Origin: Cytophagaceae bacterium
GTDB lineage: Bacteria; Bacteroidota; Bacteroidia; Cytophagales; Spirosomataceae
NCBI GenBank assembly: GCA_947460975.1
Contig: CANHGO010000001.1
Span: 186,001-250,000 of the forward strand
Direction: 5' to 3'
DNA: 64,000 nt
The notes under the pieces are model-generated. The model saw nothing but the letters and a program-made list of their open reading frames with translations. It was not told the origin of the DNA and did no database searches. Of the stretch, positions 4,401 through 63,412 are shown piece after piece (the stretch's first letter is position 1; every line of letters starts with the position of its first letter). Made by a program: the position numbers and the translations under genes.

Positions 4401-4684
4401 AAATTTCAACTTATTTTGTTGAAGATGGATCATACATGCGTATTAAGAATATCCAGTTAACTTACAATGTACCTACTAACGTGTTAAAGAAAATCAAGCT
4501 TAGTTCGATGCAAGTTTATGTGCAAGGACAAAACTTGTTGACTTTCACTAATTATAAAGGTTTAGATCCTGATATCAACATCAGAAACTCAGGAGCTGAT
4601 AATCAAGATATCCACATGGGTATTGATGAAGGTGCATTCCCAGTGGCTAAATCTTACAATGTAGGTTTAAGAGTAGGATTTTAA
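1430..4684 (+). CDS. SusC/RagA-type TonB-dependent outer-membrane transporter
   Basis: This is a TonB-dependent importer of the SusC family that works with the SusD lipoprotein encoded 32 bp downstream. The 1084 residues comprise a Sec signal peptide ending near residue 26 (VSFGQ), a carboxypeptidase-regulatory-like beta domain (about 28-105, KVQDSGGQGIPGVSIVVKGS type), a plug domain starting at VVVTGYTSQRKKDITGA (about 110-127), and a long beta-barrel ending in a C-terminal aromatic (VGLRVGF). The YVIDGVP and ASIYGARAANGVV motifs are classic for SusC. No sigma/anti-sigma pair or glycan hydrolase lies next to it, so the substrate is unknown. Confidence 0.96.
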   Translation: MKTKFYVSRVVFMMAIMLTLSWVSFGQDRKVAGKVQDSGGQGIPGVSIVVKGSTVGTTSDGNGAFSINVKSSNAELTFTSVGYVSQTVAVGGKSTLAITLADDVSQLSEVVVTGYTSQRKKDITGAVAVVSAKELTAVPAASVTQMLQGRASGVTVGNDNSPGGGTMVRVRGFGSTNNNSPLYVIDGVPTQGTLNQINPNDIESMQVLKDASAASIYGARAANGVVIITTKRGGEGEPKISFDMYTGTQQLGKTLNLMNTKEMGQYFYESQIGAGRPAGTSPSAQYRFAPDGTQTIADYIYPNVYGALPANFTYTNDITDPRLGVTAFNITKANKEGTDWQREIFGPAKISNYQLGATGGSKNGKYAISASYFDQEGILKYTGYKRYSVRANTEFKKGAITFGENVTVSIDERVGIPAGNNSESNPIMFAIRIQPIIPVFDITGGPVALGGTNTSFLNGFAGPRGSNLGNAPNPLARQWRERDNPVRSTRIFGNVFAEVEIIKDLKARTSLGFEYNNFNQSAYFNRDIEAAEARNANSLTVGNNFDRAITWYNTLNYSKKIGDHDFNVLVGTESVSTFGFGFSAQRSNFAFDDLSYRYLNNGSAAGLTNAGSGATITALFSQFGKANYSYKDFLLADFTLRRDGSSRFSPAYRYGVFPAFSVGARLSELAFMKDLTFLSDLKVRAGWGKTGNQLIPNVYNAYTLFTPDPNNNAYDIGGAGNAIASGFDIAQFGNSSGRWETNTSTNIGLDASLFNNKLDIAFDWYTRTTSDMLTQVPIPRTSGTGSIPFVNIGEVNNTGIDLNVSYRDQIGQLRYSISGQISQYKNNVVKLNDDPNASIFGFVTRVPAISLTKAGLPIASFFGYVVEGVIKDDAEAAAAVQIPGYTRAGVFKFKDVNGDGRINASDRTVIGNPHPDFTYGLNVNLGYKNWDLSVFAQGVQGNEIFNYLKYWTDFNTFQGNRSTDMLYKSWKKQGDVAQLPRLNANDTFSQQISTYFVEDGSYMRIKNIQLTYNVPTNVLKKIKLSSMQVYVQGQNLLTFTNYKGLDPDINIRNSGADNQDIHMGIDEGAFPVAKSYNVGLRVGF

Positions 4685-49370: not shown

Positions 49371-49455
49371 TATTTGTAATTTTTGTTTTTCAATGAATAA
49401 ATTTCAATAAAAAAAACATGATTAAAAAATGATCTGAGTTTAATATATTATCCAT

Positions 49456-49544
49456 AAGCTGATAATCTAATTATCATAGAATCGAATAACCTGCAGCTTT
49501 ACTAAATTACGGACTTTTGAAATTTAGTAAAGTGGGTAAAGCTA
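49456..49544. repeat. Palindromic repeat family, copy 1
   Basis: A 12-bp stem CTTTACTAAATT / AATTTAGTAAAG (49497-49508, 49521-49532) ends with GTGGGTAAAGC. The 41 bp before the stem (AAGCTGATAATCTAATT...) are shared with copy 2. It lies 54 bp before the ATG of the exported UroD-like gene. Confidence 0.85.
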
Positions 49545-49598
49545 ATTTGAAAATTGAAAATTTAACATGAAAAAAAACGCTATTTAAAACACTAAACT

Positions 49599-50669
49599 AT
49601 GAAAAATTCCTCTAGAAGAAATTTCTTAAAATCCAGCTCATTAGGCACAATAGGACTAATGGGTGCTGCGAAAGAAAGAAATCAAACACAAACCTCCCCA
49701 TTAAAAAAACCATTGAATGCGAAGGCAAAATCCAAAAGGGATTTAATGGAAGACGTATTGCAAAAAGGATCCAAATCAGATTATATACCCGCAGGATTTT
49801 TCATGCATTTTAATAAAAAAGGAGACGAAGCGGTTAAAGCTCATATGAATTATTTCAAGGCGACTCAAATGGACTTTGTGAAAATTCAGTTTGACGGAAT
49901 GAGTCTTCCGCTCAATGAACAAATAAAGACTGCGAAAGATTGGTATAAGCAGCCGATTATGCCAGAGTCGTTTTTTGAGCCTATCCTGTATATCATTAAA
50001 AATCTAGTTAAAGAGGCGAAATCTGAGGCTATGATTATACAAACACTTTACTCGCCATACCAAATGGCCAAACAAGCTGTGCCCTGGGAGTTGCTTGTTA
50101 AACACGTCAAAGAGGATCCAGAGGCGGTATGTCGCGGCATGGAAAACGTGACTCTTTCCATTTTAAATTTCGTTCAAGCCGCTGCTAAATTAGGCGTAGA
50201 TGGATTTTATACCTGTGCACAAGGGGGTGAGACAAATCGCGTGGCCGACTACCAATTATTCAATCGGGCGATTAAGAGTTTTGATATGCTTCTTTACAAA
50301 GAAGTGTCCCAATTAGTTCCCTACAACATCCTTCATATATGTGATTACGATGGTGAATATGAGGGATTTACCCCTCGATTCCAAGATTATCCCGGACAAA
50401 TAGTCAACATCCCGCTGCAAGCGGATGGAAAAGTTTTAACCTTACAAAAAGCCTCTGAAATCTTTGATAGACCTGTCATGGGTGGATTGGATCGGCATGG
50501 TGTTATCTCAACGGGAACCGTGGACCAAGTTAAAAAAGCTACGTTGAACGTGTTGAAAAATGCCCCTAATCGAGTGATTTTAAGTGCCAATTGCACCGTT
50601 AGCAATACCACACCCATCGAAAATTTAAGGGCCGCCATTCAGACTGCGCATGAATTCAGAAAAGGATAA
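49599..50669 (+). CDS. Exported uroporphyrinogen-decarboxylase-superfamily protein
   Basis: This 356-residue protein has a Tat-type leader (SSRRNFLKSSSLGTIGLMGAA, residues 4-24). Its TIM-barrel body resembles the URO-D superfamily: FYTCAQGGE near residue 210, MGGLDRHGVI near 295, and the closing NRVILSANCTVSNTTPIENLRAAI near 325. Classic HemE is cytosolic and decarboxylates uroporphyrinogen, and I do not see its N-terminal RQAGRYLPEY-type motif, so a heme role is unlikely. Other superfamily members are corrinoid methyltransferases. Substrate unknown. It follows repeat copy 1. Confidence 0.8.
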   Translation: MKNSSRRNFLKSSSLGTIGLMGAAKERNQTQTSPLKKPLNAKAKSKRDLMEDVLQKGSKSDYIPAGFFMHFNKKGDEAVKAHMNYFKATQMDFVKIQFDGMSLPLNEQIKTAKDWYKQPIMPESFFEPILYIIKNLVKEAKSEAMIIQTLYSPYQMAKQAVPWELLVKHVKEDPEAVCRGMENVTLSILNFVQAAAKLGVDGFYTCAQGGETNRVADYQLFNRAIKSFDMLLYKEVSQLVPYNILHICDYDGEYEGFTPRFQDYPGQIVNIPLQADGKVLTLQKASEIFDRPVMGGLDRHGVISTGTVDQVKKATLNVLKNAPNRVILSANCTVSNTTPIENLRAAIQTAHEFRKG

Positions 50670-50761
50670 TTGGAGATCACAAAAAACTGAAAGATAAATT
50701 CCAGTCTAAAAAATCAACTGTTTTCGCTAACGATAAAACACGATTGCTAATCATTATCAAC

Positions 50762-50852
50762 AAGCTGATAATCTAATTCTACAGAATCGAATTAACCTGC
50801 AGCTTTACCCACTTTACTAACTTTTTAAAAGTTAGTAAAGTGGGTAAAGCTA
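50762..50852. repeat. Palindromic repeat family, copy 2 (perfect 25-bp arms)
   Basis: Arms 50801-50825 and 50827-50851 are exactly complementary (AGCTTTACCCACTTTACTAA... with a single-base centre), giving a 51-bp near-perfect palindrome. The preceding 40 bp match copy 1. It ends 56 bp before the sulfatase ATG. Confidence 0.92.
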
Positions 50853-50907
50853 AAGTGAAAAAGGTAAATAAAAGATTAAATAAAACCTCAAAAAGACCCA
50901 TTAACCG

Positions 50908-52299
50908 ATGATCAAAAAATCACTCTTTCTATTTTTATTCACCTTAGCAGCGTTCATGGTTTGGGGACAAAATTCCACTAAAAAACCCAACATACTTTTT
51001 ATCGTTGCCGATGATTGGTCGAAGCATGCTGGAATCTTTGGCGATCAAGTTGTTAGGACACCTAATATCGACCGCTTAGGAAAAAACGGTTTGATTTTTG
51101 ACCAGGCGTTTTGTTCGGCTGCCTCATGCAGTCCTTCCAGAGCCAGTATTTTAACAGGGAAGCATCCTCACCAAATCGCGGAAGGAGGAAATTTATGGGG
51201 AAGTCTTCCCGTAAGTATCCCAAATTTTGTCAGCCTCATTCAAGCATCAGGTGGGTTTGTGGGCAGTGAACAAAAAGGCTGGGGCCCAGGAAATTTTAAA
51301 ATAGGTGGATACCAAGACAATCCGGCAGGGAAAAATTTCAAAAATTTTGAAGAATTTTTAGGAGCAAAACCAAAAGATAAACCTTTCTTTTTTTGGTTTG
51401 GATCCATCGATCCCCACCGTGATTATGTCAAAGGTACCGGTGAACAAGCCGGCCTGGATCCCCAAAAAGTAAAAGTACCAGGGTTCTTGCCCGACACCGA
51501 TGTAGTCAGAAAAGACATCTTAGATTACTATTTTGAAGTAGAACGATTTGATAGCAATGTGGGCAAACTCATCGCCACGCTTGAATCAAAAGGCGAATTA
51601 GAAAATACGCTCATTGTCATCACAAGTGATAACGGAATGCCTTTCCCCAGGGCAAAAGCTACCTGCTATGATTCAGGGACCAATATACCTCTCATCATGT
51701 ATTGGAAAGGCAAAATCAAGTCGGCGCGTTCAAGTGAATTAGTGAGTTTAATTGATTTAGCCCCTACCATGTTGGACGTCATGGGCATCGAAAAACCCGC
51801 TGATCTTCCTTCAAAGAGTCTGATCAATTTGATCAATGGTCGGCCAATAGCCCATAGAAATGCTGTTTTTGTAGAAAGAGAAAGGCATGCCAATGTAAGA
51901 AAAGGTAATTTGGGCTATCCAGTTCGAGGCATCAGAACGAAGGAGTTTTTATACCTGCGCAATTTTGAACCCAATCGTTTTCCGGCCGGTGATCCACAAA
52001 AATGGGTCGCCGTGGGCCCTTATGGCGACATCGATGATTCCCCATCCAAACAATTAATCATGTCAGATAGCGCCAATTATGCCTTCTTTTTTGACCGAAC
52101 GTTGAAAAAAAGAGGTTCCGAAGAATTGTATGATTTGAAAAAGGACCCGAGCCAATTGCATAATTTGGTCAATGAAAAACGATTTGAGAAACAAAAAAAT
52201 AAATTGAAAATAGAGTTGGAAGCTTGGATGAAGCGAACGAATGATCCTCGGCTTATTAACCCTAATACAAACATTTGGGATAAATATCCGTACTATTGA
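50908..52299 (+). CDS. Secreted sulfatase (alkaline-phosphatase superfamily)
   Basis: This 463-residue enzyme removes sulfate esters or N-sulfate from glycans. The signal peptide is about residues 1-21 (MVWGQ). Metal-binding ADDW (about 34-37) is followed by the maturation motif CSPSR in AASCSPSRASILTGK (about 74-88), whose Cys becomes formylglycine; DPHRDY and SDNGMPF complete the active site. It resembles heparan-N-sulfatase-type S1 enzymes, but the substrate is not proven. The sialidase-like gene starts 2 bp after its stop, so the two are probably translated together. No maturase gene is nearby. Confidence 0.93.
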   Translation: MIKKSLFLFLFTLAAFMVWGQNSTKKPNILFIVADDWSKHAGIFGDQVVRTPNIDRLGKNGLIFDQAFCSAASCSPSRASILTGKHPHQIAEGGNLWGSLPVSIPNFVSLIQASGGFVGSEQKGWGPGNFKIGGYQDNPAGKNFKNFEEFLGAKPKDKPFFFWFGSIDPHRDYVKGTGEQAGLDPQKVKVPGFLPDTDVVRKDILDYYFEVERFDSNVGKLIATLESKGELENTLIVITSDNGMPFPRAKATCYDSGTNIPLIMYWKGKIKSARSSELVSLIDLAPTMLDVMGIEKPADLPSKSLINLINGRPIAHRNAVFVERERHANVRKGNLGYPVRGIRTKEFLYLRNFEPNRFPAGDPQKWVAVGPYGDIDDSPSKQLIMSDSANYAFFFDRTLKKRGSEELYDLKKDPSQLHNLVNEKRFEKQKNKLKIELEAWMKRTNDPRLINPNTNIWDKYPYY

Positions 52300-52301
52300 C
52301 C

Positions 52302-53471
52302 ATGAAAAAATCGATCAAAATTTTCTTGGCATTCCTATTTTTTTGCGGGCCTCTAATGACCTACTGCCAATCAAAAGTACCCGGAACGGTCATTGCCTAT
52401 AGCCCTGCGTCGAGTGGCTTGTACATAGGATCGCCGAGTATCGTCGTGCTGGCCAACGGACATTATTTAGCTTCGCATGATTTTTTTGGGCCTAAATCCA
52501 CGGAACATACCTCCGCAGTTTCACGCATTTATCGATCAAAAAACAAAGGTAAAACGTGGGAAATGATCAGTGAAATCAATGGCCAATTTTGGTCTAAATT
52601 ATTTGTTCATCAATCTCATCTATACCTGATGGGAACCCACAAACATCATGGAAATGCCATCATCAGGCAATCCATGGATGAAGGGAAAACATGGACCAAC
52701 CCCACGGATCCTGAAAATGGATTATTACTGGCCGGCGAATATCACTGCGCACCGATGCCCCTCATCATCCATGAGGGCCGATTATGGCGAGCGATGGAAG
52801 ATGCAATGGGGCCGATTAAAGTTTGGGGGAAGCGCTATGGAAGTTTTATGATGTCCATTCCCGTAGATAAAAATCCGATGCAGGCGGCCAATTGGACAAA
52901 ATCGAATGTGCTAGGATATGATTCTACTTTTTTTAATGGCGCATTTGGCGGTTGGATCGAAGGAAATGCAGTGGTCGGACCTGATGGAGGTGTGTGGAAT
53001 ATGTTGCGCGTCGACAATAAAAAAAGTCTACAAGAATATGCGGCGATGGTTAAAATTAGTGCCGATGGAACACAGGCCTTTTTCGATCGGTCCACGGGTT
53101 TTATCCCATTCCCTGGAGGATCAAAAAAGTTTAGCATTCGATTTGATCCAAAAACCAAGCTTTATTGGACACTAAGTAATATTATTCCCGATGATGTCAA
53201 AAATGCCAATCCTGGTAAAAACCCTGCATCCATCAGAAATACCTTGGCCTTGTGCTTTTCAAGCGACTTGAAAAATTGGCAATTAAAGAAGATCGTGTTC
53301 CAACATCCTGATGTAATCAAGCATGGCTTTCAGTATGTCGACTGGCTTTTTGACGGTAAAAATATTTTACTGGCTTGTCGGACTGCCTACGATGATGCCT
53401 TTGACGGGGCACATAATAATCATGATGCCAATTACCTCACATTTTTTCGAATCAAAAAATTTAGGAAATAA
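52302..53471 (+). CDS. Secreted sialidase-like (BNR-type) beta-propeller protein
   Basis: This 389-residue exported protein has a signal peptide (about 1-22, MTYCQ). It carries BNR/Asp-box-like segments: SKNKGKTWEM and SMDEGKTWTNP, plus FSSDLKNWQLKKI. It resembles exo-alpha-sialidase-like proteins of unknown specificity; a full set of sialidase catalytic residues (Arg triad, Tyr/Glu pair) cannot be confirmed by eye. ATG 52302 is chosen over a TTG two codons earlier. It starts 2 bp after the sulfatase stop and ends 1 bp from the DUF3500 gene on the other strand. Confidence 0.8.
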   Translation: MKKSIKIFLAFLFFCGPLMTYCQSKVPGTVIAYSPASSGLYIGSPSIVVLANGHYLASHDFFGPKSTEHTSAVSRIYRSKNKGKTWEMISEINGQFWSKLFVHQSHLYLMGTHKHHGNAIIRQSMDEGKTWTNPTDPENGLLLAGEYHCAPMPLIIHEGRLWRAMEDAMGPIKVWGKRYGSFMMSIPVDKNPMQAANWTKSNVLGYDSTFFNGAFGGWIEGNAVVGPDGGVWNMLRVDNKKSLQEYAAMVKISADGTQAFFDRSTGFIPFPGGSKKFSIRFDPKTKLYWTLSNIIPDDVKNANPGKNPASIRNTLALCFSSDLKNWQLKKIVFQHPDVIKHGFQYVDWLFDGKNILLACRTAYDDAFDGAHNNHDANYLTFFRIKKFRK

Positions 53472-53472
53472 A

Positions 53473-54483
53473 TTAGTGGGCCGTTTTATAATGCTCCAAT
53501 AACAAATCGCCACCAAAATCATTTTTCAAATCCCGGATCACCGAGTGCACATGGTTGGCATTATTTTGAGTATTATCGTATTCAATCAACATAGAAGGGC
53601 CTTGAACCCTATAATAAGTACCCTTTCCAATCACAGGTTCCGTATGTCCAGCCCATGCAAACCACAAGTTTTCAAGCCCCGCTTTTTGAATATCCTTCAA
53701 CATACTTTCGGCCAATAAATGTGAGTAGCGGAAAACATAGAGGCGAACAAGCGCAAGCATCATGGCTTTTTGCTCCTTATTTAAATCGCTATATTTAACC
53801 CCTTTGGGGTCGCCGATGAGCGCACTTCTTTTGTCAAAAGTCAAAATATCTGGGTAAGCAACTGAGTCAATCATCGCCTGTTTAAATTGGCTTTTATTCA
53901 AAGAATGCAACAAATCAAAACCTAAATCCGATTCCTCTTTTAAAATTTGGGTCCCCATCGCAGGCCCGCTAGGCACAATGGCAGGATTCGTTCCCAAGAA
54001 CCCTGGCGTCCCTGAAACCAATAGTTTCTGATCAAAAGAAAAGTTAAATGAAATATGATGTCCTTCAAATCGCCAACCCCAGATATTCTTTTCAGAAGGT
54101 ATTCCAAAAATTGTAAAATGGTAATTGCCCGGATCGCGGTATTTATCCTCCGGTTTTCTTTTTTCCAGCTCCTTAAGAATCGCTTCTAATTTGACGATAT
54201 CGTTGGTCTTTTTATACGTTTGATCACTTAAGCAAATCTTCAACAAACCTAAACCCACTTCTATTTGCTCAGCAGACATTTCATTAAAAGTGACCCCTTT
54301 ACGCTTAATAGGCACAAAATGAAAATTGTACCGTTCATTGTTATCAAATGGGAAAAGTGTTGAGAGCTTTTGCTCCTCCGTTAATAACTCGATAAAACGA
54401 TTGGCTTGTTTAACGGCATTTTGGGCTAAACTCGAAGGTACGATTGAGCCAAAAAGAAAAATGAATAGCAGTAATTTCTTCAT
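53473..54483 (-). CDS. Secreted DUF3500-family protein
   Basis: This 336-residue exported protein has a signal peptide (MKKLLLFIFLFGSIVPSSLAQ). The DUF3500 features I recognise are FNEMSAEQIEVGLGLLKICLS, YHFTIFGIPSEKNIWGWRFEGHHISFNFSF, FLGTNPA, and the closing YYRVQGPSMLIEYDNTQNNANHVHSVIRDLKNDFGGDLLLEHY. The HH in EGHHIS and the HVHSVIRD histidines look like a metal site; that is inference. Function of the family is unknown. It sits tail to tail with the sialidase-like gene, with a 1-bp gap. Confidence 0.85.
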   Translation of the reverse strand: MKKLLLFIFLFGSIVPSSLAQNAVKQANRFIELLTEEQKLSTLFPFDNNERYNFHFVPIKRKGVTFNEMSAEQIEVGLGLLKICLSDQTYKKTNDIVKLEAILKELEKRKPEDKYRDPGNYHFTIFGIPSEKNIWGWRFEGHHISFNFSFDQKLLVSGTPGFLGTNPAIVPSGPAMGTQILKEESDLGFDLLHSLNKSQFKQAMIDSVAYPDILTFDKRSALIGDPKGVKYSDLNKEQKAMMLALVRLYVFRYSHLLAESMLKDIQKAGLENLWFAWAGHTEPVIGKGTYYRVQGPSMLIEYDNTQNNANHVHSVIRDLKNDFGGDLLLEHYKTAH

Positions 54484-54677
54484 ATAGGTTTGTGTTACAG
54501 AAACAAGTTAGGATTATTTATTCTATTGCGCCAAAAATAATGGCTGATTTAACGGGATTTCGGGTCGAAATGGTAATTAGGGTGATTCAAAATTTACACA
54601 TGATCGGCAAATTAACCTTCAAGCATGGAAAGATTTTTTATGCGGAATGTGCTTAGCAAATGATGGCTACTATATTA

Positions 54678-56900
54678 TTAAAATCTTCTCATGGCTCTAA
54701 CCTGACCTAGTGAACCCTTTAAAAATGTTTGATATTCAAATGCAAAATTTCCGGCTTCAGCAAAAAATGTTACTCCCATACAATTGTCAGCATCGGCTTG
54801 AGTTGAAGATATATACACACTTCCAAAAGAAATATTGACTTGGTTTTTAACAAGTTTCACTTTTTTAAGTTCTTCAAAACTTGGTAAAAACCAATCCGAA
54901 TACCCCCCACCACGAAATTCAACACAAATTTTTGCTGCTCTCGGGTATAATCCTCCTTTACAAGTATTTAAAGCATTGACAGAATTTTCGCATCCTGAGA
55001 GCAAACTTGACCCTGTATTTACAGATATTCCTTGCCCAGGAAGATTGTTCGAGCAACCAAAAGTAAGGCCCCAAGAAGGTTGTGGAAAATCAGTAGTTGA
55101 AACAATTAAACCATGAAATTCTCCAGGAATATACCCTGGATCCCCTGGCTGTAAAATATAAGTAACGATACCTCCTTGGTAATAATCGCCTATTCTAATA
55201 TTCGAAGGTGCAGATGTTTTAGGGTAATTCACACAGCTAATAACAGGTACTTCGGTCGTCGGAGGAGTAGTTCCCCCCGTCCCCGGACTCGCAGGAGGTG
55301 TGACAACCACTACAGGCGGTGGCGGAGGAGGTGGAGTTACCGCAGTTTTAAAACTTCTTTCTTCCCCATAAAATATCCCTTTTTTGTTGATCGCATAAGC
55401 CCTAACATAGTACGTCGTTCCTTCCGATAAACCGGAGAAATTATACGAAAAACCGCCTAAACCAGAACCTAAATCTACTTTCCGATCAGTAATGCTTGGA
55501 TTTCGATTTTGCCCAAAACAGAATCCTCGTTCCGTTACAGGGGTGTTTCCCTCATCTGAAACTTGGCCATTGGCCTGAGCTGACCGAGTAGTCACCTGGC
55601 CCACATCCTGGGTAATAACATTCGGCGGAGTATAAGCCACCGTGGTGAACGAAACTTGGTTTCCATACTGCAAACCTTTCCTGTTTTTTGCAAAACTTCG
55701 CACATAATATAAAGTCCCAGGCTGCAACTCAGTCATCACCAATTTAAATACACCCAATTCCCCTGAGACAAGGTATTTGTTGTCTTGTACGGTAGGATTA
55801 GGTTGGGTACTAAAACAAAATCCCCGTTCCAAAATTGGAACCCCACCATCATATTTCACCTCAGCTTCATATTTGGCCGAAGTAAACAATATATTGGTAA
55901 CTGGCAGTGTAACAATCTCCGGAAATTTAATATCGAGCGTCGTAAAACTTTGGACATTCCCTAATGAATAGCCCTTTTCATTTTTAGCAAAAGACCGATA
56001 ATAATACGTGATATTTTCGATCAATTCAGTCACCACGGTTTTCATTGGCCCCACGACATTTTGGCTGGAAGCAAACTTCATATCAGAAAGCGAAGGATTT
56101 GGAGAAAGCCCCATTAAAAAACCTCGCTCAAAAATTTGCCCACCCCCATCGTCAAAAACCTCCCCATGTAACGTAGCTAAAAACATCCCAATATCTGATG
56201 CAGGATTGGTTTTTAATTTAACCAAGCGATAATCCAAAGTGGTGAAATTTAGTTCATTTCCATAGGCTATCCCGATGGAATTTACGGCAAAAGAACGAAC
56301 ATAGTAAAGCGTGTTTTCTTTTAATTGGCTTGCGACTATGGCAAATTTTCCTTCGCCATTGCCCACTGAAATCTTTACATCTTTGATGGTAGGCGCCTTA
56401 TTCAGACTAAAGCAAATTCCTCGATCAGTCACTACCTTTCCCCCATCATAGGTAATTTCACCCCCCATTAAGGCGTTGGTAATACCAATATTTTTAACCG
56501 TATCGGTGGATAAGGTTGCAACTCGGAATTCAAGCGTGCTAAAAGCTTTTACATTTCCTTGGCCATTATTGCGATCTGATATAGCATACGAAAAAAATGA
56601 ATAGGCTTTCTTGGCCTGCAAATTCTTTAACATATAAGTAAATTCGCCGCTTCCAGGACCTAAACTTATTTTGTTTTTTAAAACCGTAGCAGCGCTATCG
56701 TTCGCTGTCCAATAAAATCCGCGATCCGTAATTTCACCCGCATCAGGACTTTGGACATCTGCATGAAGTTTAACGGATGTGGCCTTTATTTCATTCGCCT
56801 CCCTCGTGTTGACATAAATGGGAGCACGATACGGTTCTTTTAGGCAAGAAAAGAAAATGAAACCAATAAATACCCAAAAGTGATTTAAAGTGAATTTCAT
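54678..56900 (-). CDS. Surface lipoprotein with five Fn3-like repeats and a C-terminal Lcl/DUF1566-like domain
   Basis: This 740-residue protein has a lipobox FFSC (Cys19). Five repeats of about 95 residues follow; each starts with a strand and an ERGF/DRGF-type motif (ITDRGFYW, VTDRGICF, IFERGFLM, ILERGFCF, VTERGFCF) and ends ...YYVRSFAKN..GxxYGN..SFTT. A proline-rich linker (PPPPPPPV, about 530-560) leads to a C-terminal Lcl/DUF1566-like domain: IRIGDYYQGGIVTYIL, AAKICVEFRGGGYSDWFLPSFEELKKV. Likely an adhesive or carbohydrate-binding surface protein. ATG 56900 is used; the preceding codon is TTG. Confidence 0.85.
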   Translation of the reverse strand: MKFTLNHFWVFIGFIFFSCLKEPYRAPIYVNTREANEIKATSVKLHADVQSPDAGEITDRGFYWTANDSAATVLKNKISLGPGSGEFTYMLKNLQAKKAYSFFSYAISDRNNGQGNVKAFSTLEFRVATLSTDTVKNIGITNALMGGEITYDGGKVVTDRGICFSLNKAPTIKDVKISVGNGEGKFAIVASQLKENTLYYVRSFAVNSIGIAYGNELNFTTLDYRLVKLKTNPASDIGMFLATLHGEVFDDGGGQIFERGFLMGLSPNPSLSDMKFASSQNVVGPMKTVVTELIENITYYYRSFAKNEKGYSLGNVQSFTTLDIKFPEIVTLPVTNILFTSAKYEAEVKYDGGVPILERGFCFSTQPNPTVQDNKYLVSGELGVFKLVMTELQPGTLYYVRSFAKNRKGLQYGNQVSFTTVAYTPPNVITQDVGQVTTRSAQANGQVSDEGNTPVTERGFCFGQNRNPSITDRKVDLGSGLGGFSYNFSGLSEGTTYYVRAYAINKKGIFYGEERSFKTAVTPPPPPPPVVVVTPPASPGTGGTTPPTTEVPVISCVNYPKTSAPSNIRIGDYYQGGIVTYILQPGDPGYIPGEFHGLIVSTTDFPQPSWGLTFGCSNNLPGQGISVNTGSSLLSGCENSVNALNTCKGGLYPRAAKICVEFRGGGYSDWFLPSFEELKKVKLVKNQVNISFGSVYISSTQADADNCMGVTFFAEAGNFAFEYQTFLKGSLGQVRAMRRF

Positions 56901-56987
56901 CAATTAGAACTAAGAAATATGAACCAAAATTACACGAAACACCATTTAAATTTTTAAAATCTTATTTAAAGGTCAATTCATTTGAGA

Positions 56988-57722
56988 TTAAAAATTCCAA
57001 CCCGAAGGGGATTTGTTGGCCTCCAACGAACCCTCTACATCATCCGAGAGGGAGGAGAAAAAATCTAAATTTGTCAACTTCTCAATTTCGTCTACCGAAA
57101 CAATAAAGTTTTTTAAAGGCAGGGAAGACCCCGAATTACTTAACAAAAATCCGATCATTTTGGGGTTCGAACCTTCCTTGAAAATGACTTTATAAAAGGA
57201 ACAAGGCACCGTGATGCCTCCGCCAATGGTTCCACAGGAGTTCGTTAAAACAGGTCCTGTGACCACATACACACCGCCTAAATTCAACGCGTTTTCGCGC
57301 ACTTTATCTTCTAAATTACTCCAAATTCCTCGATTGAACGATGGGGTCATCGGGGACATATTGGACATAAAAAAGGTTTCCGACATGGCGGTTAAATTCA
57401 ATTTGAAATCGGCCGCAGGGGCTAAATGTCCACGGTCAAATCCAGATCCTTGATAAGATGTACTCGTCACGGGATTCGATTTAACGGAGGGGTCTATACG
57501 AAAGTCATCCGTCCTTTCTTGCATGCCTTTGATCGAAGCAACGGACAAATAATAAAAAGCAAATTCCGCTTGTCGGTCAGACGGCGAATAGGATAATGTA
57601 TAATAGGTGTGTTGAATAACATAGCCTTTAGCTATTTTCGGAACATAATCTGCCGACGGATTTATTTCATCCTGGGCACAAGAAATGAATAGGAGAAAAA
57701 AAAGAACGGCAAATTTTGACAT
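56988..57722 (-). CDS. DNA/RNA non-specific endonuclease (lipoprotein)
   Basis: This 244-residue nuclease of the beta-beta-alpha-metal (NucA/EndA) family is anchored by a lipobox (LFISC, Cys15). The catalytic motif DRGHLAPAAD contains the general-base His (about residue 98), and the metal-binding Asn lies in FFMSNMSPMTPSFNRGIW. It cleaves DNA and RNA outside the cytoplasm, for nutrient supply or biofilm DNA. A C-terminal variable tail follows. It faces the same way as the five-repeat lipoprotein gene, 87 bp upstream of it. Confidence 0.93.
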   Translation of the reverse strand: MSKFAVLFFLLFISCAQDEINPSADYVPKIAKGYVIQHTYYTLSYSPSDRQAEFAFYYLSVASIKGMQERTDDFRIDPSVKSNPVTSTSYQGSGFDRGHLAPAADFKLNLTAMSETFFMSNMSPMTPSFNRGIWSNLEDKVRENALNLGGVYVVTGPVLTNSCGTIGGGITVPCSFYKVIFKEGSNPKMIGFLLSNSGSSLPLKNFIVSVDEIEKLTNLDFFSSLSDDVEGSLEANKSPSGWNF

Positions 57723-57962
57723 GTAATGAAAGAAGGTTGAATAAATATAAGGAATAATTGTTTGCCAAAAGGCAAAGCTTCATTGGCAAATTTTGACAAT
57801 TCTAAAAATTTGGATTTTTTCATTTAAATTTAACAACTCAGTCCAATGACTTGTTCGTGAGGACAATTAGGCAGAGGAGATGAAGAACGAGGCAACCCAT
57901 TGGCGGAAATTTGGTTGATCAAGAAATAGATAAAATGAATAAAGAGGAATCAAATCAAATGA
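57723..57962. other. Gene-free stretch between the nuclease and the TIM-barrel gene
   Basis: Together with repeat copy 3 this makes a 326-bp intergenic region. It holds a small hairpin TTTGCC-AAAA-GGCAAA (57761-57776) and otherwise no open frame or RNA I can support. The divergent promoters of the two flanking genes must lie here, but I see no clear TAnnTTTG box with good spacing. Confidence 0.5.
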
Positions 57963-58013
57963 AGCTTTACTAACTTTACTAACTTTTGAAAAGTTAGTAA
58001 AGTTGGGTAAAGC
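57963..58013. repeat. Palindromic repeat family, copy 3
   Basis: AGCTTTACTAACTTTACTAACTTTT - G - AAAAGTTAGTAAAGTTGGGTAAAGC: arms pair over about 24 bp with a one-base length difference. The core matches copies 2 and 4. It ends 35 bp before the ATG of the TIM-barrel gene. Confidence 0.9.
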
Positions 58014-58048
58014 GAAAATGTAATAAACCTATAAAACCTATAAAATCT

Positions 58049-58921
58049 ATGAAAAGAGAGCAATTTTTACAAAAAAGTGCTTTGGGAATATTTGCTGCTA
58101 TCACGCATACAAATGCTTTACATGCCGAAGATCAGCGCCAATTAAAGGATAAACAATTTTCCATCGGCGCGTGTGATTGGTCGATCTCCAATACCTCCAA
58201 TTTAGGGGCTATGGAAATGGCGAAAGAAATAGGATTAGATGGTGTCCAATTAAGCCTTGGCTTAAAGGCCAACAACATGCATTTACGCAGAAAAGATGTG
58301 CAAGAAGCCTATAAATCGTTAGCTAAAATCTTTAACGTTGGCTTTACAGGATTGGGCATCGGCGAGCTCAACAACTACCCATTTAAGTCGGACCCACAGA
58401 CAGACCAATGGGTAGCCGACAGCATTCAAGTGGCCAAAGAATTCAAAATCAAAGCCGTTTTAATTGCCTTTTTTAACCAAGGGGATTTGAAAAATGACCC
58501 AAAGGGACAAGATGCTGTCATTCAAAAATTTAAGGACATCATGCCCATTGCAGAAAAAGCTGGGGTTAACTTGGGCATCGAATCTTGGTTAAGCGCGGAG
58601 GAACACATGCGCATCATCGACGCGGTGGGTTCGACCCATTTAAAGGTCTATTATGATGTGGCTAACTCTGAAAAAATGGGTTACAACATCTACGAAGAAA
58701 TTAAATGGTTAGGTAAGAAAAATCAAATTTGCGAATTTCATTTTAAAGAGAATGACGCGCTTTTGGGGCAGGGAAAAGTGGACTTCCAACGCGTAAAAAA
58801 TTGTATCGATGAGATTGGATATTCCGGGGCCATTCAAATAGAAGGCGCCGTTCCTCCTGGAAAAACGATGCTGGAAAGCTATTTAAAAAACAATCGATTT
58901 GTCCGAGATTTAGTGTCCTAA
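58049..58921 (+). CDS. Exported xylose-isomerase-like TIM-barrel (sugar phosphate isomerase/epimerase family)
   Basis: This 290-residue TIM barrel has a leader resembling the Tat-dependent leaders of its relatives (MKREQFLQKSALGIFAAITHTNA) but with KRE instead of RR, so Sec export is also possible. The AP_endonuc_2 superfamily fold is clear: FSIGACDWSI, MAKEIGLDGVQLSLG, and metal-site acids in LGIESWL, YYDVANSEKMGYN, EFHFKEND, IQIEGA. Family members isomerise or epimerise sugars or keto-sugars. It is followed 36 bp later by the PVC-type dehydrogenase gene, so they are probably one unit. Confidence 0.88.
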   Translation: MKREQFLQKSALGIFAAITHTNALHAEDQRQLKDKQFSIGACDWSISNTSNLGAMEMAKEIGLDGVQLSLGLKANNMHLRRKDVQEAYKSLAKIFNVGFTGLGIGELNNYPFKSDPQTDQWVADSIQVAKEFKIKAVLIAFFNQGDLKNDPKGQDAVIQKFKDIMPIAEKAGVNLGIESWLSAEEHMRIIDAVGSTHLKVYYDVANSEKMGYNIYEEIKWLGKKNQICEFHFKENDALLGQGKVDFQRVKNCIDEIGYSGAIQIEGAVPPGKTMLESYLKNNRFVRDLVS

Positions 58922-58957
58922 AAAACAATTTAATTATTACTCCAAACATTGTTATTC

Positions 58958-61816
58958 ATGAAAATTATCAGCACCATTCTCCTGTTTTTATTTCCATTGT
59001 TTTTCACCAATGACGGAACTACGTTGTTTGTTCCGGAGGGTTTGGAGGTCGAGCTTTGGGCGGAATCACCGATGTTGTACAATCCGACCAACATGGACGT
59101 GGATGCCAGAGGACGTATTTGGGTGACTGAGGCCGTTGAATATCGAGATTTTAACAACAAGCCTGATACCCGGTTTAATTTCAAAAACCAAGGGGATCGA
59201 ATTATCATTTTAGAGGATACCGACCAAGATGGCAAAGCGGATAAGTCCACCGTCTTTGTACAGGACATGGATTTAAAAGCCCCTTTGGGAATTGCGGTCA
59301 TTGGCAATAAAATTTTTGTCAGCGCATCCCCGCACGTGATCGTGTATACAGATGAAAATCACGATGATAAACCTGATAAAAAAGAAGTCTTTTTAACGGG
59401 ATTTGGAGGCTTTGATCACGATCATTCTTTGCACTCATTTTTGGCCACGCCCTATGGAAAATTCCTATTTAATGTAGGAAATGCCGGCCCACATGTAGTG
59501 AAAGATAAATCGGGTTGGACCCTCCGTTCAGGCAGCCTGTATGCCGGTGGAACTCCCTATAATAAAAACAATGAGGGAAATCAAAAAAGCGATGATGGCC
59601 GTGTGTGGGTTGGGGGTTTGGCTTTAGAAATCGCTCCCGATGCAAGCCAATTAAAAGTAATGGCGCATAATTTTAGAAATAGTTATGAGGTGGCCATGGA
59701 TTCGTATGGCAATATGTGGCAAAATGACAACGATGACCAAGTCATTGCCTGCCGAACTTCTTGGCTCATGGAAGGAAGTAATGCCGGATATTTCTCCAAA
59801 GACGGAACTCGATATTGGCAAGGGGATCGAAGGTTAGACCAAGATATTTTTACAGCCCATTGGCACCAAGAGGACCCCGGTGTATTGAAAGTGGGCGACA
59901 AAACAGGTGCCGGTTCCCCCACCGGAGTGACCGTTTATGAAGGAGATGCCTTAGGAGAAAAATATAGGGGCATGCTGTTAAGTTGCGAAGCCGGAAGAAA
60001 TTTAGTGTTTGGCTATAAAACGAATCCGCAAGACGCGGGTTTCAACATGAAAAGATTTGACTTTTTAAGTTCATTTCCAGTCTCGGATGATTTTTACATT
60101 TGGAATGACAATTTCGAAGCCGATAAAAGAAAATGGTTTAGACCCAGCGACGCCGTCACAGGTACTGATGGCGCCATTTATGTGGCTGATTGGTACGATG
60201 CGGTCGTAGGTGGCCATGCGATGAACGATAAAAAAGGATATGGTAGAATTTATCGGATTACACCAAAAGGCAAAAATCTAAAAGCGCCCAGATTAGATTT
60301 TACGACCACCAAGGGACTTGTGGGCGTTTTAAAATCACCCGCCATTAATGTCAGAGCGGTAGCCTTTGAGAAATTAAAAAATATGGGGGAAAAAATAATC
60401 CCGGACATCGAACCCCTATTGGCAGATTCAAATCCTTATATTCAAGCGAGGGCTATTTGGTTATTAGCTGCTTTGGGTCCAAAAGGGTTAGAAAAAGTAG
60501 AAAACATCTTAATTAAAAATACATCAAAACCTGTAACAAAGGTCGGGACATCATCTGAAATTGTGGTGACTGCCTATCGTTCTTTGCGTAAATCAGGCAA
60601 AAATCTTCAAGAGATCAATCATAGGCTTTTGAGATATTCGTTACCTTCTGCTTTATTGAGGGAAATAGCGATAGGTCTCAGGGACCTAAACTATCAGGAT
60701 AGCAAAGAAAGTTTGTTGCATATAGCCCTTAAGGTTAGCTCAAAAGATCCCTATTTATTGACCGCATTGGGAATCGGTGTAGATGAAAAAAGGGAATTAT
60801 TTTATGCAGATTATGTTAAAAAATTACCTGCAAATCCGCTCAATTATTCAACAGCTCAAAGTTCCATTTTGTGGGAGTTGCACCCCAATGCCAGTATAAA
60901 TTTGATTAAAAAAAGAGCCCAATCGCCTACATTAACAGCCAATCAAAGAAAAGAAGCCATGACAACTATCGCATTTATGAGCACTCCTGAGGCTGCGCAC
61001 GCGATGCTTGATTTAACAAAATCGAAATTGGCCGACGTAGCCCGACAAGCAGATTATTGGGTTAGTTTCCGAAAAACAAATACATGGGAAAATGTGATTG
61101 CCTGGAAAGTGGAAGAGGAACAGCAATTAAGTCGGGAGCAAAAATGGATGATCCAATCCGAAAATTCATTATTAAATGACACCACATTAGTGGCTGAAAA
61201 AAAGCAAGAACTCGCTCAAAAATTAGCACTAGATACTTATGGCGCTAGATTATTGATGGTTGACGCAGCAAAAGGAAAAATCAAACCCAAGGTTAGGGAA
61301 TTGATTGAACTTCATATTTTCAATAATAAAGACATATCCATCCGAAGTTTGGCGGCTGATTATTTCAAACGCCCGGGAGGAAAATCACTGTCAATCGACT
61401 TGGCCATGAACATGCCATCAGATGCTAAAAAAGGCAAAACTATTTTTAAAACTAATTGCATTTCATGCCACAAAATTAGTGGAAAAGGAGCAGATGTTGG
61501 TCCTGATTTAACCTTAATCAAAAAGAAATTTGACAAAAAAAGTATGCTAGACGCCATCATTAACCCATCGGCTAGTTTAGCTTTTGGATATGAGCCCTGG
61601 ATGATTAGCACCCAGTCGGGCAGTTATTATGGATTTTTAATGGCTGATGCCAAACAAATTATCCTGAAAGATTTAACAGGAAAAAGAAATAATATCAAAG
61701 CTTCAGATGTGACCTCTAGGGTACAGCAAAAAAATAGTTTGATGCCAGAACCTACCTCGATGGGATTAAAAGAAAAAGATTTATCGGATTTAACAGGCTA
61801 TTTATTGAGCTTGTAA
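58958..61816 (+). CDS. PVC-type membrane-bound dehydrogenase with HEAT-like repeats and cytochrome c domain
   Basis: This 952-residue exported protein has a signal peptide (about 1-18). Residues ~25-440 form a beta-propeller dehydrogenase-like domain (LFVPEGLEVELWAESPMLYNPTNMDVDARGRIWV; HDHSLHSF; RNSYEVAMDSYGNMWQNDNDD; DWYDAVVGGHAM). A HEAT-like helical part spans about 450-810. A C-terminal cytochrome c has CISCH near residue 835, followed by GKGADVGPDLT and a late Met ligand. The architecture is the PVC-type heme-binding protein known from Planctomycetes and Verrucomicrobia and also found in Bacteroidota. A role in periplasmic sugar oxidation is inferred. ATG 58958 preferred over TTG 58949. 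Confidence 0.92.
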   Translation: MKIISTILLFLFPLFFTNDGTTLFVPEGLEVELWAESPMLYNPTNMDVDARGRIWVTEAVEYRDFNNKPDTRFNFKNQGDRIIILEDTDQDGKADKSTVFVQDMDLKAPLGIAVIGNKIFVSASPHVIVYTDENHDDKPDKKEVFLTGFGGFDHDHSLHSFLATPYGKFLFNVGNAGPHVVKDKSGWTLRSGSLYAGGTPYNKNNEGNQKSDDGRVWVGGLALEIAPDASQLKVMAHNFRNSYEVAMDSYGNMWQNDNDDQVIACRTSWLMEGSNAGYFSKDGTRYWQGDRRLDQDIFTAHWHQEDPGVLKVGDKTGAGSPTGVTVYEGDALGEKYRGMLLSCEAGRNLVFGYKTNPQDAGFNMKRFDFLSSFPVSDDFYIWNDNFEADKRKWFRPSDAVTGTDGAIYVADWYDAVVGGHAMNDKKGYGRIYRITPKGKNLKAPRLDFTTTKGLVGVLKSPAINVRAVAFEKLKNMGEKIIPDIEPLLADSNPYIQARAIWLLAALGPKGLEKVENILIKNTSKPVTKVGTSSEIVVTAYRSLRKSGKNLQEINHRLLRYSLPSALLREIAIGLRDLNYQDSKESLLHIALKVSSKDPYLLTALGIGVDEKRELFYADYVKKLPANPLNYSTAQSSILWELHPNASINLIKKRAQSPTLTANQRKEAMTTIAFMSTPEAAHAMLDLTKSKLADVARQADYWVSFRKTNTWENVIAWKVEEEQQLSREQKWMIQSENSLLNDTTLVAEKKQELAQKLALDTYGARLLMVDAAKGKIKPKVRELIELHIFNNKDISIRSLAADYFKRPGGKSLSIDLAMNMPSDAKKGKTIFKTNCISCHKISGKGADVGPDLTLIKKKFDKKSMLDAIINPSASLAFGYEPWMISTQSGSYYGFLMADAKQIILKDLTGKRNNIKASDVTSRVQQKNSLMPEPTSMGLKEKDLSDLTGYLLSL

Positions 61817-61880
61817 ACTAGCATAAAAGCACTTCCGAAAATCCAACCTGAAAGATATGAAGGTTGACAAAAATCATTTT

Positions 61881-61913
61881 TAGCCCCCCGCAAATTTTCT
61901 AATTTGCGGGCTA
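61881..61913 (+). promoter_or_regulatory. Hairpin enclosing the hemN start region
   Basis: TAGCCC(CCC)GCAAATT pairs with AATTTGCGGGCTA (61901-61913) around a TTCT loop: 13 bp with a 3-nt bulge. The A of the hemN ATG is the last base of the 3' arm, so the ribosome-binding region is inside the stem. No T-run follows on the plus strand, so it is not an ordinary terminator for the upstream gene. Confidence 0.7.
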
Positions 61914-63277
61914 TGCAGGAAATACCCCTCGATTTATTAACCAAATATAATGTGGCCATTCCGCGGTACACAAGTTATCCTACGGTACCCTTTTGGGAGG
62001 AAAAAATTGATTCTGATCATTGGAAATTATTATTCGCCAGAAGGTTTCAGGAATCAAATACCCAGGAAGGAATTAGTCTATACATTCATCTGCCCTATTG
62101 TGAAAGTCTATGTACATTTTGTGGCTGCAACAAACGCATTACAACCAATCATTCCGTTGAAAAAGAATACATAGATGCACTCATTCTAGAATGGAATTTG
62201 TACAAAATTTTGATGGGGCAAAAACCCGTGATTCGAGAATTTCATATTGGCGGCGGAACGCCCACTTTTTTCTCTCCTGAAAATTTGAATCGTTTATTGG
62301 CCGCCATATTTCAAGATTCCATCATTCCAGAAGCGCATGAATTTGGTTTTGAGGGACACCCAAATAATACGACTAAAGCGCATTTAAAAATGTTTAGGAA
62401 TTGGGGATTTAATCGAGTCAGTTTTGGAATGCAGGATAGTAATTTAGAAGTCCAACAAATCATCAACCGAATTCAGCCGCTAAAAAATGTAAAAAGAGTC
62501 GTTAAATGGGCTCGAGAGCTTGGATATGAATCCATTAATTTGGATTTAGTTTATGGATTACCTAGGCAAGATTTGCCAAAAATAACCAAGACCATTGAAG
62601 ATGCCTTGGCCATCAGACCAGATCGAATTGCCTTTTATAGCTATGCTCATGTGCCCTGGACGAGCCGAGCCCAACGCCTATTTGATGAACGCGATTTACC
62701 TAGTGCGAACCAAAAAATGGCACTTTACCAACAAGGTAAAAACATGTTTGGAGCAGCGGGGTATGTTGACATAGGCATGGATCACTTTGCCTTACCGAAT
62801 GACCCAATGGCATTGGCCCATTCGGAGGGAAATCTGCACCGTAATTTCATGGGATATACCATTCAAAAAACAGGATTGCTCATGGGATTAGGTGTCTCAA
62901 GCATCAGTGATATTTATTATGGCTTTGCCCAAAACAAAAAATCCATTAGCGAATATTTCGAGCAAATTGCCCATCAAGAATTAGCCATTTTTAAAGGGTA
63001 TTTTTTAACAAAGACTGACCAAAAAATGAGGCAGTATATCCTCGACATTGCATGCCAAGGACGAACCAATTTTAATGAAAATGATTTAGCCATTTTACAG
63101 GAATATACTTTTGGGGAATTAGAAGATTTGGCAAAAGATGGATTATTACACTTTGACCAACATGGAGTCGAACTCACTAAATTGGGAAAGCATTTTACAC
63201 GCAACGTTTGTAAAGCCTTTGACTTAAAACTACTAAGCTCTGAGGTTTTAGAAAAATCTTTCAGCCAGGCCATTTGA
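61913..63277 (+). CDS. hemN: Oxygen-independent coproporphyrinogen III oxidase
   Basis: This radical-SAM enzyme converts coproporphyrinogen III to protoporphyrinogen IX without oxygen. The N-terminal KYNVAIPRYTSYPT (about residues 11-24) and the 4Fe-4S motif CESLCTFCGC (about 58-67), then HIGGGTPTFF, are diagnostic for true HemN rather than HemW. Length 454 is normal. ATG 61913 fits the N-terminus; a TTG nine bases earlier is less likely. The start codon lies at the edge of a strong hairpin. Confidence 0.95.
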   Translation: MQEIPLDLLTKYNVAIPRYTSYPTVPFWEEKIDSDHWKLLFARRFQESNTQEGISLYIHLPYCESLCTFCGCNKRITTNHSVEKEYIDALILEWNLYKILMGQKPVIREFHIGGGTPTFFSPENLNRLLAAIFQDSIIPEAHEFGFEGHPNNTTKAHLKMFRNWGFNRVSFGMQDSNLEVQQIINRIQPLKNVKRVVKWARELGYESINLDLVYGLPRQDLPKITKTIEDALAIRPDRIAFYSYAHVPWTSRAQRLFDERDLPSANQKMALYQQGKNMFGAAGYVDIGMDHFALPNDPMALAHSEGNLHRNFMGYTIQKTGLLMGLGVSSISDIYYGFAQNKKSISEYFEQIAHQELAIFKGYFLTKTDQKMRQYILDIACQGRTNFNENDLAILQEYTFGELEDLAKDGLLHFDQHGVELTKLGKHFTRNVCKAFDLKLLSSEVLEKSFSQAI

Positions 63278-63364
63278 TTTTAAAAATTCAACCAATTGAT
63301 ATTAAATTTATTTTATCAGTTTACTTGTGCAAAAAAAGAAGGTATTTATTTGAATTTTAATAAC

Positions 63365-63412
63365 TTAGCTAAGCTTTACTAACTTTTGAAAAGTTAGTAA
63401 AGCTGGAGCTAA
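63365..63412. repeat. Palindromic repeat family, copy 4
   Basis: Inner arms AGCTTTACTAACTTTT (63372-63387) and its complement (63389-63404) are perfect, with an outer TTAGCT/AGCTAA pair. It lies between the convergent ends of hemN and the desaturase-like gene, unlike copies 1-3, which precede start codons. Confidence 0.88.

What the first reader, a model, noticed from the sequence alone, without database searches (positions are those of the whole stretch)
49456..63412. Four-copy family of large palindromes built on AAAGTTAGTAAAG
Copies at 49456-49544, 50762-50852, 57963-58013 and 63365-63412 share the core CTTTACTAACTTTT and its complement. Copy 2 is a perfect 25-bp inverted repeat with a 1-bp centre. 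Three copies lie 35-57 bp before the ATG of exported proteins (UroD-like, sulfatase, TIM-barrel) in the same orientation; the fourth is between convergent genes. They may be a mobile REP/MITE-like element or a shared regulator site for this accessory locus.
Basis: partly seen in the sequence, partly recalled or inferred. Interest (0 to 1): 0.7.

Follow-up and report, generated by a model that had tools for sequence, protein, structure and literature searches.

The report
Transposase-linked palindromes scattered between genes
The four hairpin-forming repeats belong to a small family of scattered DNA palindromes that goes with its own ancient single-copy transposase-like gene in a group of freshwater bacteria; it is a new member of a known kind (REP/RAYT-type repeats) rather than a switch for the genes beside it.

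Summary
The palindromes are real and far beyond chance. They are four of about 14 copies in this partial genome of a 33-bp element, AGCTTTACTAACTTTTNAAAAGTTAGTAAAGCT (F1). Copy 1 is degenerate; copies 2 and 3 carry a nested 9-bp arm extension. F1 is found in 11 genomes of one freshwater Cytophagales genus; a scan of one genome per 84,980 species found the exact palindrome in 10 assemblies, all matching that genus. Its partner is a 197-aa Y1/HUH (RAYT-type) gene with an F1 palindrome on each side. I examined 30 such genes in the genus: all have flanking palindromes, and the palindrome sequence follows the RAYT clade, although the 24 F1/F2/F4 genes keep one chromosomal locus. Genomes in which the gene was not found hold fewer copies (4-6 against 8-22). 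Copies are mostly inherited in place (30 sites, 26 in two or more species) and favour convergent gene ends. The "shared regulator of this accessory locus" reading is not supported; the mobile-REP reading is, but without GTAG feet, so it fits the "TIRtron/atypical REPtron" variety. Unexplained: a site-specific outer stem of about 8 bp at 13 of 30 sites.

The parts
49495..49543 (.). Copy 1: degenerate F1 palindrome between divergent ORFs, 55 bp before the ATG at 49599
   Evidence: 30 of 49 bases self-complementary; 81% match to the copy 2 region
50801..50851 (.). Copy 2: perfect 51-bp palindrome; foot AGCTTTACCCA enclosing an F1 core (nested 9-bp module), 56 bp before the ATG at 50908
57963..58013 (.). 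Copy 3: nested F1 palindrome (CTTTACTAA repeated once in the left arm), 35 bp before the ATG at 58049
63372..63404 (.). Copy 4: plain 33-bp F1 palindrome between convergent ORFs
   Evidence: 32 of 33 bases self-complementary
63364..63412 (.). Outer stem of copy 4: CTTAGCT ... AGCTAAG, 7 bp, separated from the core by a 1-nt/2-nt internal loop; kept in 8 of 8 orthologous copies (7 with 7 bp, one with 6)
49447..49472 (+). Companion motif of copy 1 (ATTATCCATAAGCTGATAATCTAATT)
   Evidence: family D7, 92% alike to the copy 2 motif; motif of this type enriched near cores
50753..50778 (+). Companion motif of copy 2 (ATTATCAACAAGCTGATAATCTAATT)
   Evidence: family D7

Best explanation
The palindromes are the dispersed, non-autonomous repeats of a REPtron/TIRtron-type system. 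A single-copy Y1/HUH tyrosine transposase-like gene (RAYT type; not in the window, at G000:C9:21815-22405) is flanked on both sides by the same 33-bp palindrome. Most likely the RAYT protein recognises the palindrome as a single-stranded DNA hairpin and cuts and rejoins it, so that copies are now and then seeded into other intergenic spacers; copies that do little harm, many of them beyond gene ends, are then inherited in place. Repeat sequence and RAYT change together from clade to clade. Shown here: the anatomy, the match of palindrome type to RAYT clade, the fixed locus of the gene, inheritance of most sites within the F1 clade, mostly different sites in a sister clade, and lower copy number where the gene was not found. 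Inferred from published work on TnpA-REP of E. coli and Stenotrophomonas: hairpin binding, cleavage and strand transfer. Any effect on neighbouring mRNAs is untested.
For: Genome-wide copies (28 matches with up to 1 mismatch against 12 for the reversed control pattern; exact pattern 21 against 1). Genus restriction. The Y1 gene lies between two F1 palindromes 742 bp apart. 30 of 30 examined RAYT genes have flanking palindromes, 29 on both sides and one cut by a contig end. Palindrome type needs 4 changes on the RAYT tree, the minimum possible, shuffled mean 16.9. F1-type RAYT in 8 of 11 F1-palindrome genomes and in 0 of 27 others, Fisher p 3e-6. All 24 F1/F2/F4 genes start 159-367 bp after the same neighbour gene on the same strand. 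G014 and G017 lack gene and palindromes at that locus and have 5 and 6 copies. Best sequence relations of the protein: Y1_Tnp 24.4 bits over a 23-bit cut-off, REP transposase model E 2.6e-13, TnpA-REP 4er8 as the only PDB match of the profile, weak at E 0.099. Convergent spacers 11/30 against 11/130, p 3e-4.
Against: No clean insertion footprint was found: the one clear empty site looks more like a deletion, so movement is inferred from site differences. Most F1 sites are old and shared, so activity now is not shown. The RAYT scores 50 bits where the curated REP-transposase cut-off is 80, and single-sequence phmmer found no PDB relative. Copy numbers per genome come from incomplete assemblies and two search methods, and the genomes are related, so the p values lean high in confidence. 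Dispersed copies were counted for F1 and F2 only, not for F3, F4 and F5.
Confidence: 0.85

Rival explanations
1. A shared regulatory site: the palindrome is an operator or mRNA-leader hairpin that co-regulates the exported proteins of this accessory locus.
For: Three of four window copies lie 35-56 bp before ATGs. Orthologous copies are kept before the sulfatase-like and TIM-barrel ORFs in G010. Arms are unusually constant.
Against: 11 of 30 sites are between convergent ORFs and only 10 of 30 lie within 100 bp upstream of a called start. The sequence of the palindrome is set by the RAYT clade and flanks the RAYT gene itself.
Confidence: 0.05
2. Structural elements kept for their own sake: bidirectional terminators or 3'-end hairpins, with the RAYT association a by-product.
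For: Very stable hairpins (z -6 to -10 for five of six folded copies), excess at convergent gene ends, outer stems kept in 75 of 75 copies of 13 sites.
Against: Does not explain why the same 33-bp sequence is used at all sites, why it switches as a set with the RAYT clade, or why copies stand before starts as well. No terminator scan was run.
Confidence: 0.07
3. A MITE of an ordinary DDE-type insertion sequence.
For: Dispersed short palindromes; one subfamily has longer shared flanks.
Against: The gene found bounded by this palindrome is the single-copy Y1 gene, and no target duplication was seen at the one clear empty site. I ran no search for other transposase families.
Confidence: 0.03

Closest known systems
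TIRYT / TIRtron (Di Nocera et al. 2013, PMC3733652; abstract, passages and section 16 seen)
   Same: RAYT-like HUH/Y gene flanked by inverted repeats unrelated to GTAG REPs; some such repeats are self-complementary and form dispersed families.
   Different: Here a family of repeat types in one genus, each matched to a RAYT clade at a fixed locus; copies are singlets, 742 bp or more apart in the loci examined, whereas many TIRs are described as dimers or clusters.
TnpA-Y1 subclass 2.6 (Bertels group 5) and subclass 2.1 (group 1) in Quentin et al. 2018 (PMC6006769; passages seen)
   Same: 2.6: mostly Bacteroidetes, flanked by 'atypical secondary structures' with copies elsewhere and no GT[AG]G. 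2.1: motifs NH[YF]H, FQ, Y[IV]HLNP and an SS tail, close to ours.
   Different: HUH-Y spacing is 64 (F1), 68 (F2, F4) and 77 (F3, F5) residues here, against a median of 82 in 2.6 and 58-67 in most other subclasses; 2.1 was reported without REPs. Their profiles are not at hand, so the subclass is open.
REP orthogroups and 'orthoswitch' in Pseudomonas and Stenotrophomonas (Nunvar et al. 2013, PMC3686654; passages seen)
   Same: Orthologous RAYTs at one chromosomal place flanked by different REP classes; REP abundance depends on the cognate RAYT.
   Different: Those REPs carry GT[AG]G and mostly occur as close inverted doublets; ours do neither.
REPIN/RAYT populations in E. coli (PMC8049555; passages seen)
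   Same: Single-copy, vertically inherited RAYT; more repeats in genomes with the gene than without.
   Different: 8-22 copies here, against 69-235 REPINs per E. coli genome given there.

Membership tests
RAYT / Y1 tyrosine transposase | HUH motif and downstream catalytic tyrosine in a Y1 domain | tested here: met
   NHYH at 61 and YIHNNP at 129 of the F1 protein; N61, H62, H64, Y129 and N133-P134 are invariant in 21 aligned relatives; Pfam Y1_Tnp 24.4 bits, cut-off 23
RAYT / Y1 tyrosine transposase | Passes the curated NCBIfam model for REP-associated tyrosine transposase | tested here: not met
   F1 protein 50.1 bits and F2 protein 50.8 bits against a cut-off of 80; best match of both, but below the threshold
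RAYT / Y1 tyrosine transposase | The protein binds and cuts its own repeat as ssDNA | not testable with these tools
   needs biochemistry
Canonical REP / REPtron | GTAG or GTGG tetranucleotide at the 5' foot of the hairpin | tested here: not met
   GT[AG]G within 12 nt 5' of the core on either strand at 2 of 30 sites
Canonical REP / REPtron | Cognate repeats flank the RAYT gene | tested here: met
   30 of 30 genes examined, 29 on both sides; 3 further matches came without loci and were not examined
REPIN (inverted doublet) | Two repeats in close inverted orientation | tested here: not met
   neighbouring copies in the loci examined are 742 bp or more apart
TIRYT / TIRtron | RAYT-like gene flanked by inverted repeats unrelated to GTAG REPs | tested here: met
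TIRYT / TIRtron | Repeat has dispersed copies | tested here: met
   F1: 138 copies in 11 genomes; F2: 16 in G018. F3, F4 and F5 were not counted
TnpA-Y1 subclass 2.6 (Quentin 2018) | Long HUH-Y distance (median 82) with an insertion between helix C and strand 4 | tested here: inconclusive
   64, 68 or 77 residues between the second H of HUH and the Y; the published measure and profiles are not at hand

The most novel reading that the evidence does not exclude
The palindromes are installed at, or rewritten within, the tips of hairpins. At 13 of 30 sites the constant core sits on a site-specific outer stem of near-constant length (exactly 8 bp in 51 of 75 copies, range 6-9), most often behind a 1-nt/2-nt internal loop (53 of 75). 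The self-nested copies (window copies 2 and 3) have the same build with the element's own foot as outer stem. At the L366 site the hairpin centre differs among the genomes and is CTTTTTAAAAG in G000. If a Y1 enzyme swaps hairpin tips, or makes an inverted target duplication of fixed size, that would be a new target rule for this superfamily and a way to rewrite a dispersed repeat family in place.
Probability: 0.17. Interest if true: 0.7.

Novelty: new member of a known kind. Interest (0 to 1): 0.4.

Why it matters
It carries the RAYT-repeat partnership (fixed gene locus, clade-matched switch of the repeat, fewer copies where the gene is missing) into a Cytophagales genus whose repeats lack the GTAG guide. 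That gives a compact natural set (30 genes, five repeat types, absences of the gene) for asking how such proteins recognise hairpins without the guide tetranucleotide and what keeps these systems so long. For annotation it explains the palindromes and removes a false regulon.

Tried and rejected
Regulon idea: rejected on site positions and on the RAYT pairing. Four-copy local family: rejected. Phage-borne family: the exact palindrome gave 0 stretches in the viral contig collection. Gradual decay of copies in genomes without the gene: not seen; the 15 copies found there with up to 3 mismatches (G014, G017, G027) have intact outer 12-nt arms and are fewer. Insertion footprint at the spacer: G014 and G017 lack about 64 bp between two TTTAGC repeats but keep other spacer sequence seen in the occupied genomes and not in the 22 non-F1 genomes, so a deletion is the simpler reading. 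Structure: AlphaFold on six near-identical rows failed (pLDDT 42.6), so no fold search was run. F1 and F2 sites as one ancestral set: of 16 F2 sites in G018, the palindrome upstream of the RAYT and one other spacer share both flanking genes with one of 30 F1 sites; the downstream RAYT palindrome shares the RAYT only, and three more share one gene but on its other side. The hairpin-tip reading has no outgroup support: at the one spacer compared, none of 22 non-F1 genomes shows the outer stem.

Rows dropped: copy 1 of the window from the arm, stem and companion-motif rows; sites too close to a contig end; matches without loci. Copies 1 and 2 count as one site in the 30. One site (G033, L148) is not a plain palindrome copy but lies in a 222-bp relic of the RAYT 3' end.

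Papers: PMC3733652 abstract, outline, passages and section 16; PMC6006769, PMC8266576, PMC8049555 and PMC3686654 passages only; PMC12306157 one passage. Bertels et al. 2017 (10.1093/gbe/evx146) is not held; its groups are quoted from PMC6006769. Searches that could have shown an earlier description; the listings and passages seen name no such palindromes in this genus, but the listed papers were not read beyond the passages stated. Names recalled and not from a call: MET8/siroheme synthase, pirin, DtxR, SNF2, HemN, Glf.
Full report
1. The observation. Four large palindromes lie at the stated places. CTTTACTAACTTT with up to two mismatches is found 15 times in the window against a shuffled mean of 2.86, maximum 8 in 100 shuffles. 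Copy 2 is perfect (25-bp arms, 1-nt centre). Copy 1 is degenerate. The shared unit is the 33-bp palindrome AGCTTTACTAACTTTTNAAAAGTTAGTAAAGCT, here called F1. Copies 2 and 3 carry an extra 9-bp module, so that a foot of the type AGCTTTACYNA encloses a second core.

2. Genome and genus. The window is G000:C1:186001-250000 of a 1.5-Mb assembly estimated at 62.6% complete. One search counted 14 copies there, including degenerate copy 1 and one variant core. The exact 14-mer is found in 13 of 59 genomes: 11 of 37 of the genus, and 2 of 22 of other genera of the order, each with one match on one strand only. A scan of one genome for each of 84,980 species for the exact palindrome gave 108 stretches. 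The viral contig collection gave none.

3. The partner gene. A search for Pfam Y1_Tnp in 38 genus genomes found, among others, a 197-aa gene in F1 genomes lying between two F1 palindromes 742 bp apart. A protein search found relatives in 25 of 38 genomes, 33 matches. I examined the 30 that came with loci. All 30 have flanking palindromes, 29 on both sides; the one in G033 is cut by the contig end. The types are F1 AGCTTTACTAACTTTTN.. (8 genes), F2 AGATTTGACAACTTTTN.. (6), F4 TACCTTTGCCAATCCT.. with variants (10), F3 AACGCTGTCAAGGTTTN.. (5) and F5 AACGCTGCCGGGGTC.. (1). On a tree of the 30 proteins the types need 4 changes, the minimum possible, against a shuffled mean of 16.9. The tool warns of long branches, and the root is a midpoint only.

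4. Fixed locus, changing repeat. All 24 F1, F2 and F4 genes start 159-367 bp after, and on the same strand as, one neighbour gene (siroheme-synthase-like; the name is recalled). One orthologous gene has thus kept its place while the palindromes on both sides changed, in both arms at once. The same pattern is described in Pseudomonas and Stenotrophomonas as REP orthogroups and 'orthoswitch' (PMC3686654, passages).

5. Without the gene. G014 and G017 belong to the F1 clade; at this locus they have the neighbour gene followed directly by the gene that stands beyond the RAYT in G000, with no RAYT and no palindrome. G027 ends at a contig edge there, so its gene may be missing only from the assembly. 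These three hold 5, 6 and 4 copies with up to 3 mismatches (5, 5 and 4 by the pattern), against 8-22 in the eight genomes with the gene. Exact Mann-Whitney p is 0.012, also after scaling by completeness. Related species are not independent and the counts come from two search methods, so this is suggestive only. It agrees with reports for E. coli REPINs (PMC8049555, passages).

6. Sites. 138 copies fall into 30 orthologous sites, 26 of them in two or more species (window copies 1 and 2 fall in one cluster). Over 304 orthologous pairs the outer 12+12 arm bases are identical (7296 of 7296) while flanks are 87.7% identical. The sites were found by a core pattern, so this is partly circular. A search allowing 3 mismatches in four genomes found 35 copies, and all changes listed lie in the centre, outside the outer 12-nt arms. 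Strongly changed copies exist too: at the L366 site ten other genomes have different or shorter hairpins, and G033 has a decayed copy at the L356 site; related symmetric variants stand at further orthologous places. By mechanical ORF calls the 30 sites are convergent 11, tandem 13, divergent 5 and inside a called ORF 1; 130 palindrome-free spacers are convergent 11, tandem 74 and divergent 45. The convergent excess has p 3e-4; the deficit of divergent spacers, p 0.08, is not significant. 10 of 30 lie within 100 bp upstream of a called start (counted on the rows).

7. A sister clade. G018 has 16 F2 copies. The palindrome upstream of the RAYT and one other spacer (G000 L361, G018 L338) share both flanking genes with one of the 30 F1 sites; the other 14 do not. 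In that shared spacer the sequence around the palindrome is not alike by eye. So positions turn over on longer time scales, although I found no clean insertion junction.

8. Unexplained anatomy. At 13 of 30 sites the core sits on a site-specific outer stem of at least 6 bp; pairing flanks of different sites gives a mean of 1.08 and a maximum of 5 in 1000 shuffles. The stem is kept in 75 of 75 copies of these sites, is exactly 8 bp in 51 and has a 1-nt/2-nt internal loop in 53 (counted on the rows). Orthologous copies are not independent, three of the sites share nearly the same outer stem (TATGTCCT/TATATCCT) and two use the element's own foot. The other 17 sites have no such stem; several share longer flanks, with AACTGATAWTC 32 nt from the core in 22 of 126 copies. 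ACTGAT or its complement occurs 20 times in 4640 bases near cores and 4 times in 13,210 bases of other spacers. In the window alone, AACTGATAWTC is not above chance (5 matches, shuffled mean 3.48). ATCA-N-TGAT lies within 100 nt of the core at 10 of 30 F1 sites and 5 of 16 F2 sites, and in 337 of 6900 random paired windows, a control that includes coding sequence. Similar motifs stand upstream of the F1, F2 and F4 RAYT genes printed. The dispersed unit may therefore be larger than the palindrome.

9. Filing. The protein is RAYT-like by motifs and best matches, but below the curated REP-transposase threshold. The repeats are not canonical GTAG REPs and not REPIN doublets. The system fits TIRtrons (PMC3733652, section 16) and resembles the Bacteroidetes subclass 2.6 with 'atypical secondary structures'; spacing and motifs of the F1 protein lean to subclass 2.1, which was reported without REPs (PMC6006769, passages). 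I file it as a new member of the kind 'RAYT with atypical palindromes', with the outer-stem anatomy as the point that may prove new.

Noticed in passing
window 49456-50900 and L351 (G010): In G010 a single palindrome stands between the genes that in G000 flank copy 1, the UroD-like gene and copy 2; the UroD-like gene is missing there. Copies 1 and 2 with their shared flanks may have acted as direct repeats for gain or loss of the gene.
   Followed up: partly
L148 (G033) around 4340-4560: A 222-bp stretch 81-83% alike to the RAYT 3' end, its downstream palindrome and sequence beyond lies at a second place inside a contig: a relic duplication of the RAYT locus end.
   Followed up: partly
L220, L221, L222 (G016, G034, G025): A further 178-aa Y1 gene, twice in G034. 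The G016 protein passes the REP-transposase cut-off (120.8 bits, cut-off 80), but no exact palindrome with arms of 10 bp or more was found in these stretches.
   Followed up: no
L228-L232 (G016, G034, G021, G018, G025): Around an IS200-type gene (L228 protein 70.5 bits, cut-off 55) stand GCCATGGATTTAAATCCATGGC-type palindromes, in L229 eight at 92-94 bp steps, and one F3 palindrome in each stretch.
   Followed up: no
L143, L107, L164 and L161, L170: At two orthologous sites a symmetric variant of the palindrome (AGCTTTAAAACTTTT..) stands where other species have F1; both arms differ together.
   Followed up: partly
L097 (G033): At the site of L155:3091 the palindrome and neighbouring bases are missing in L097, apparently a deletion between short GCTTT repeats.
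   Followed up: no
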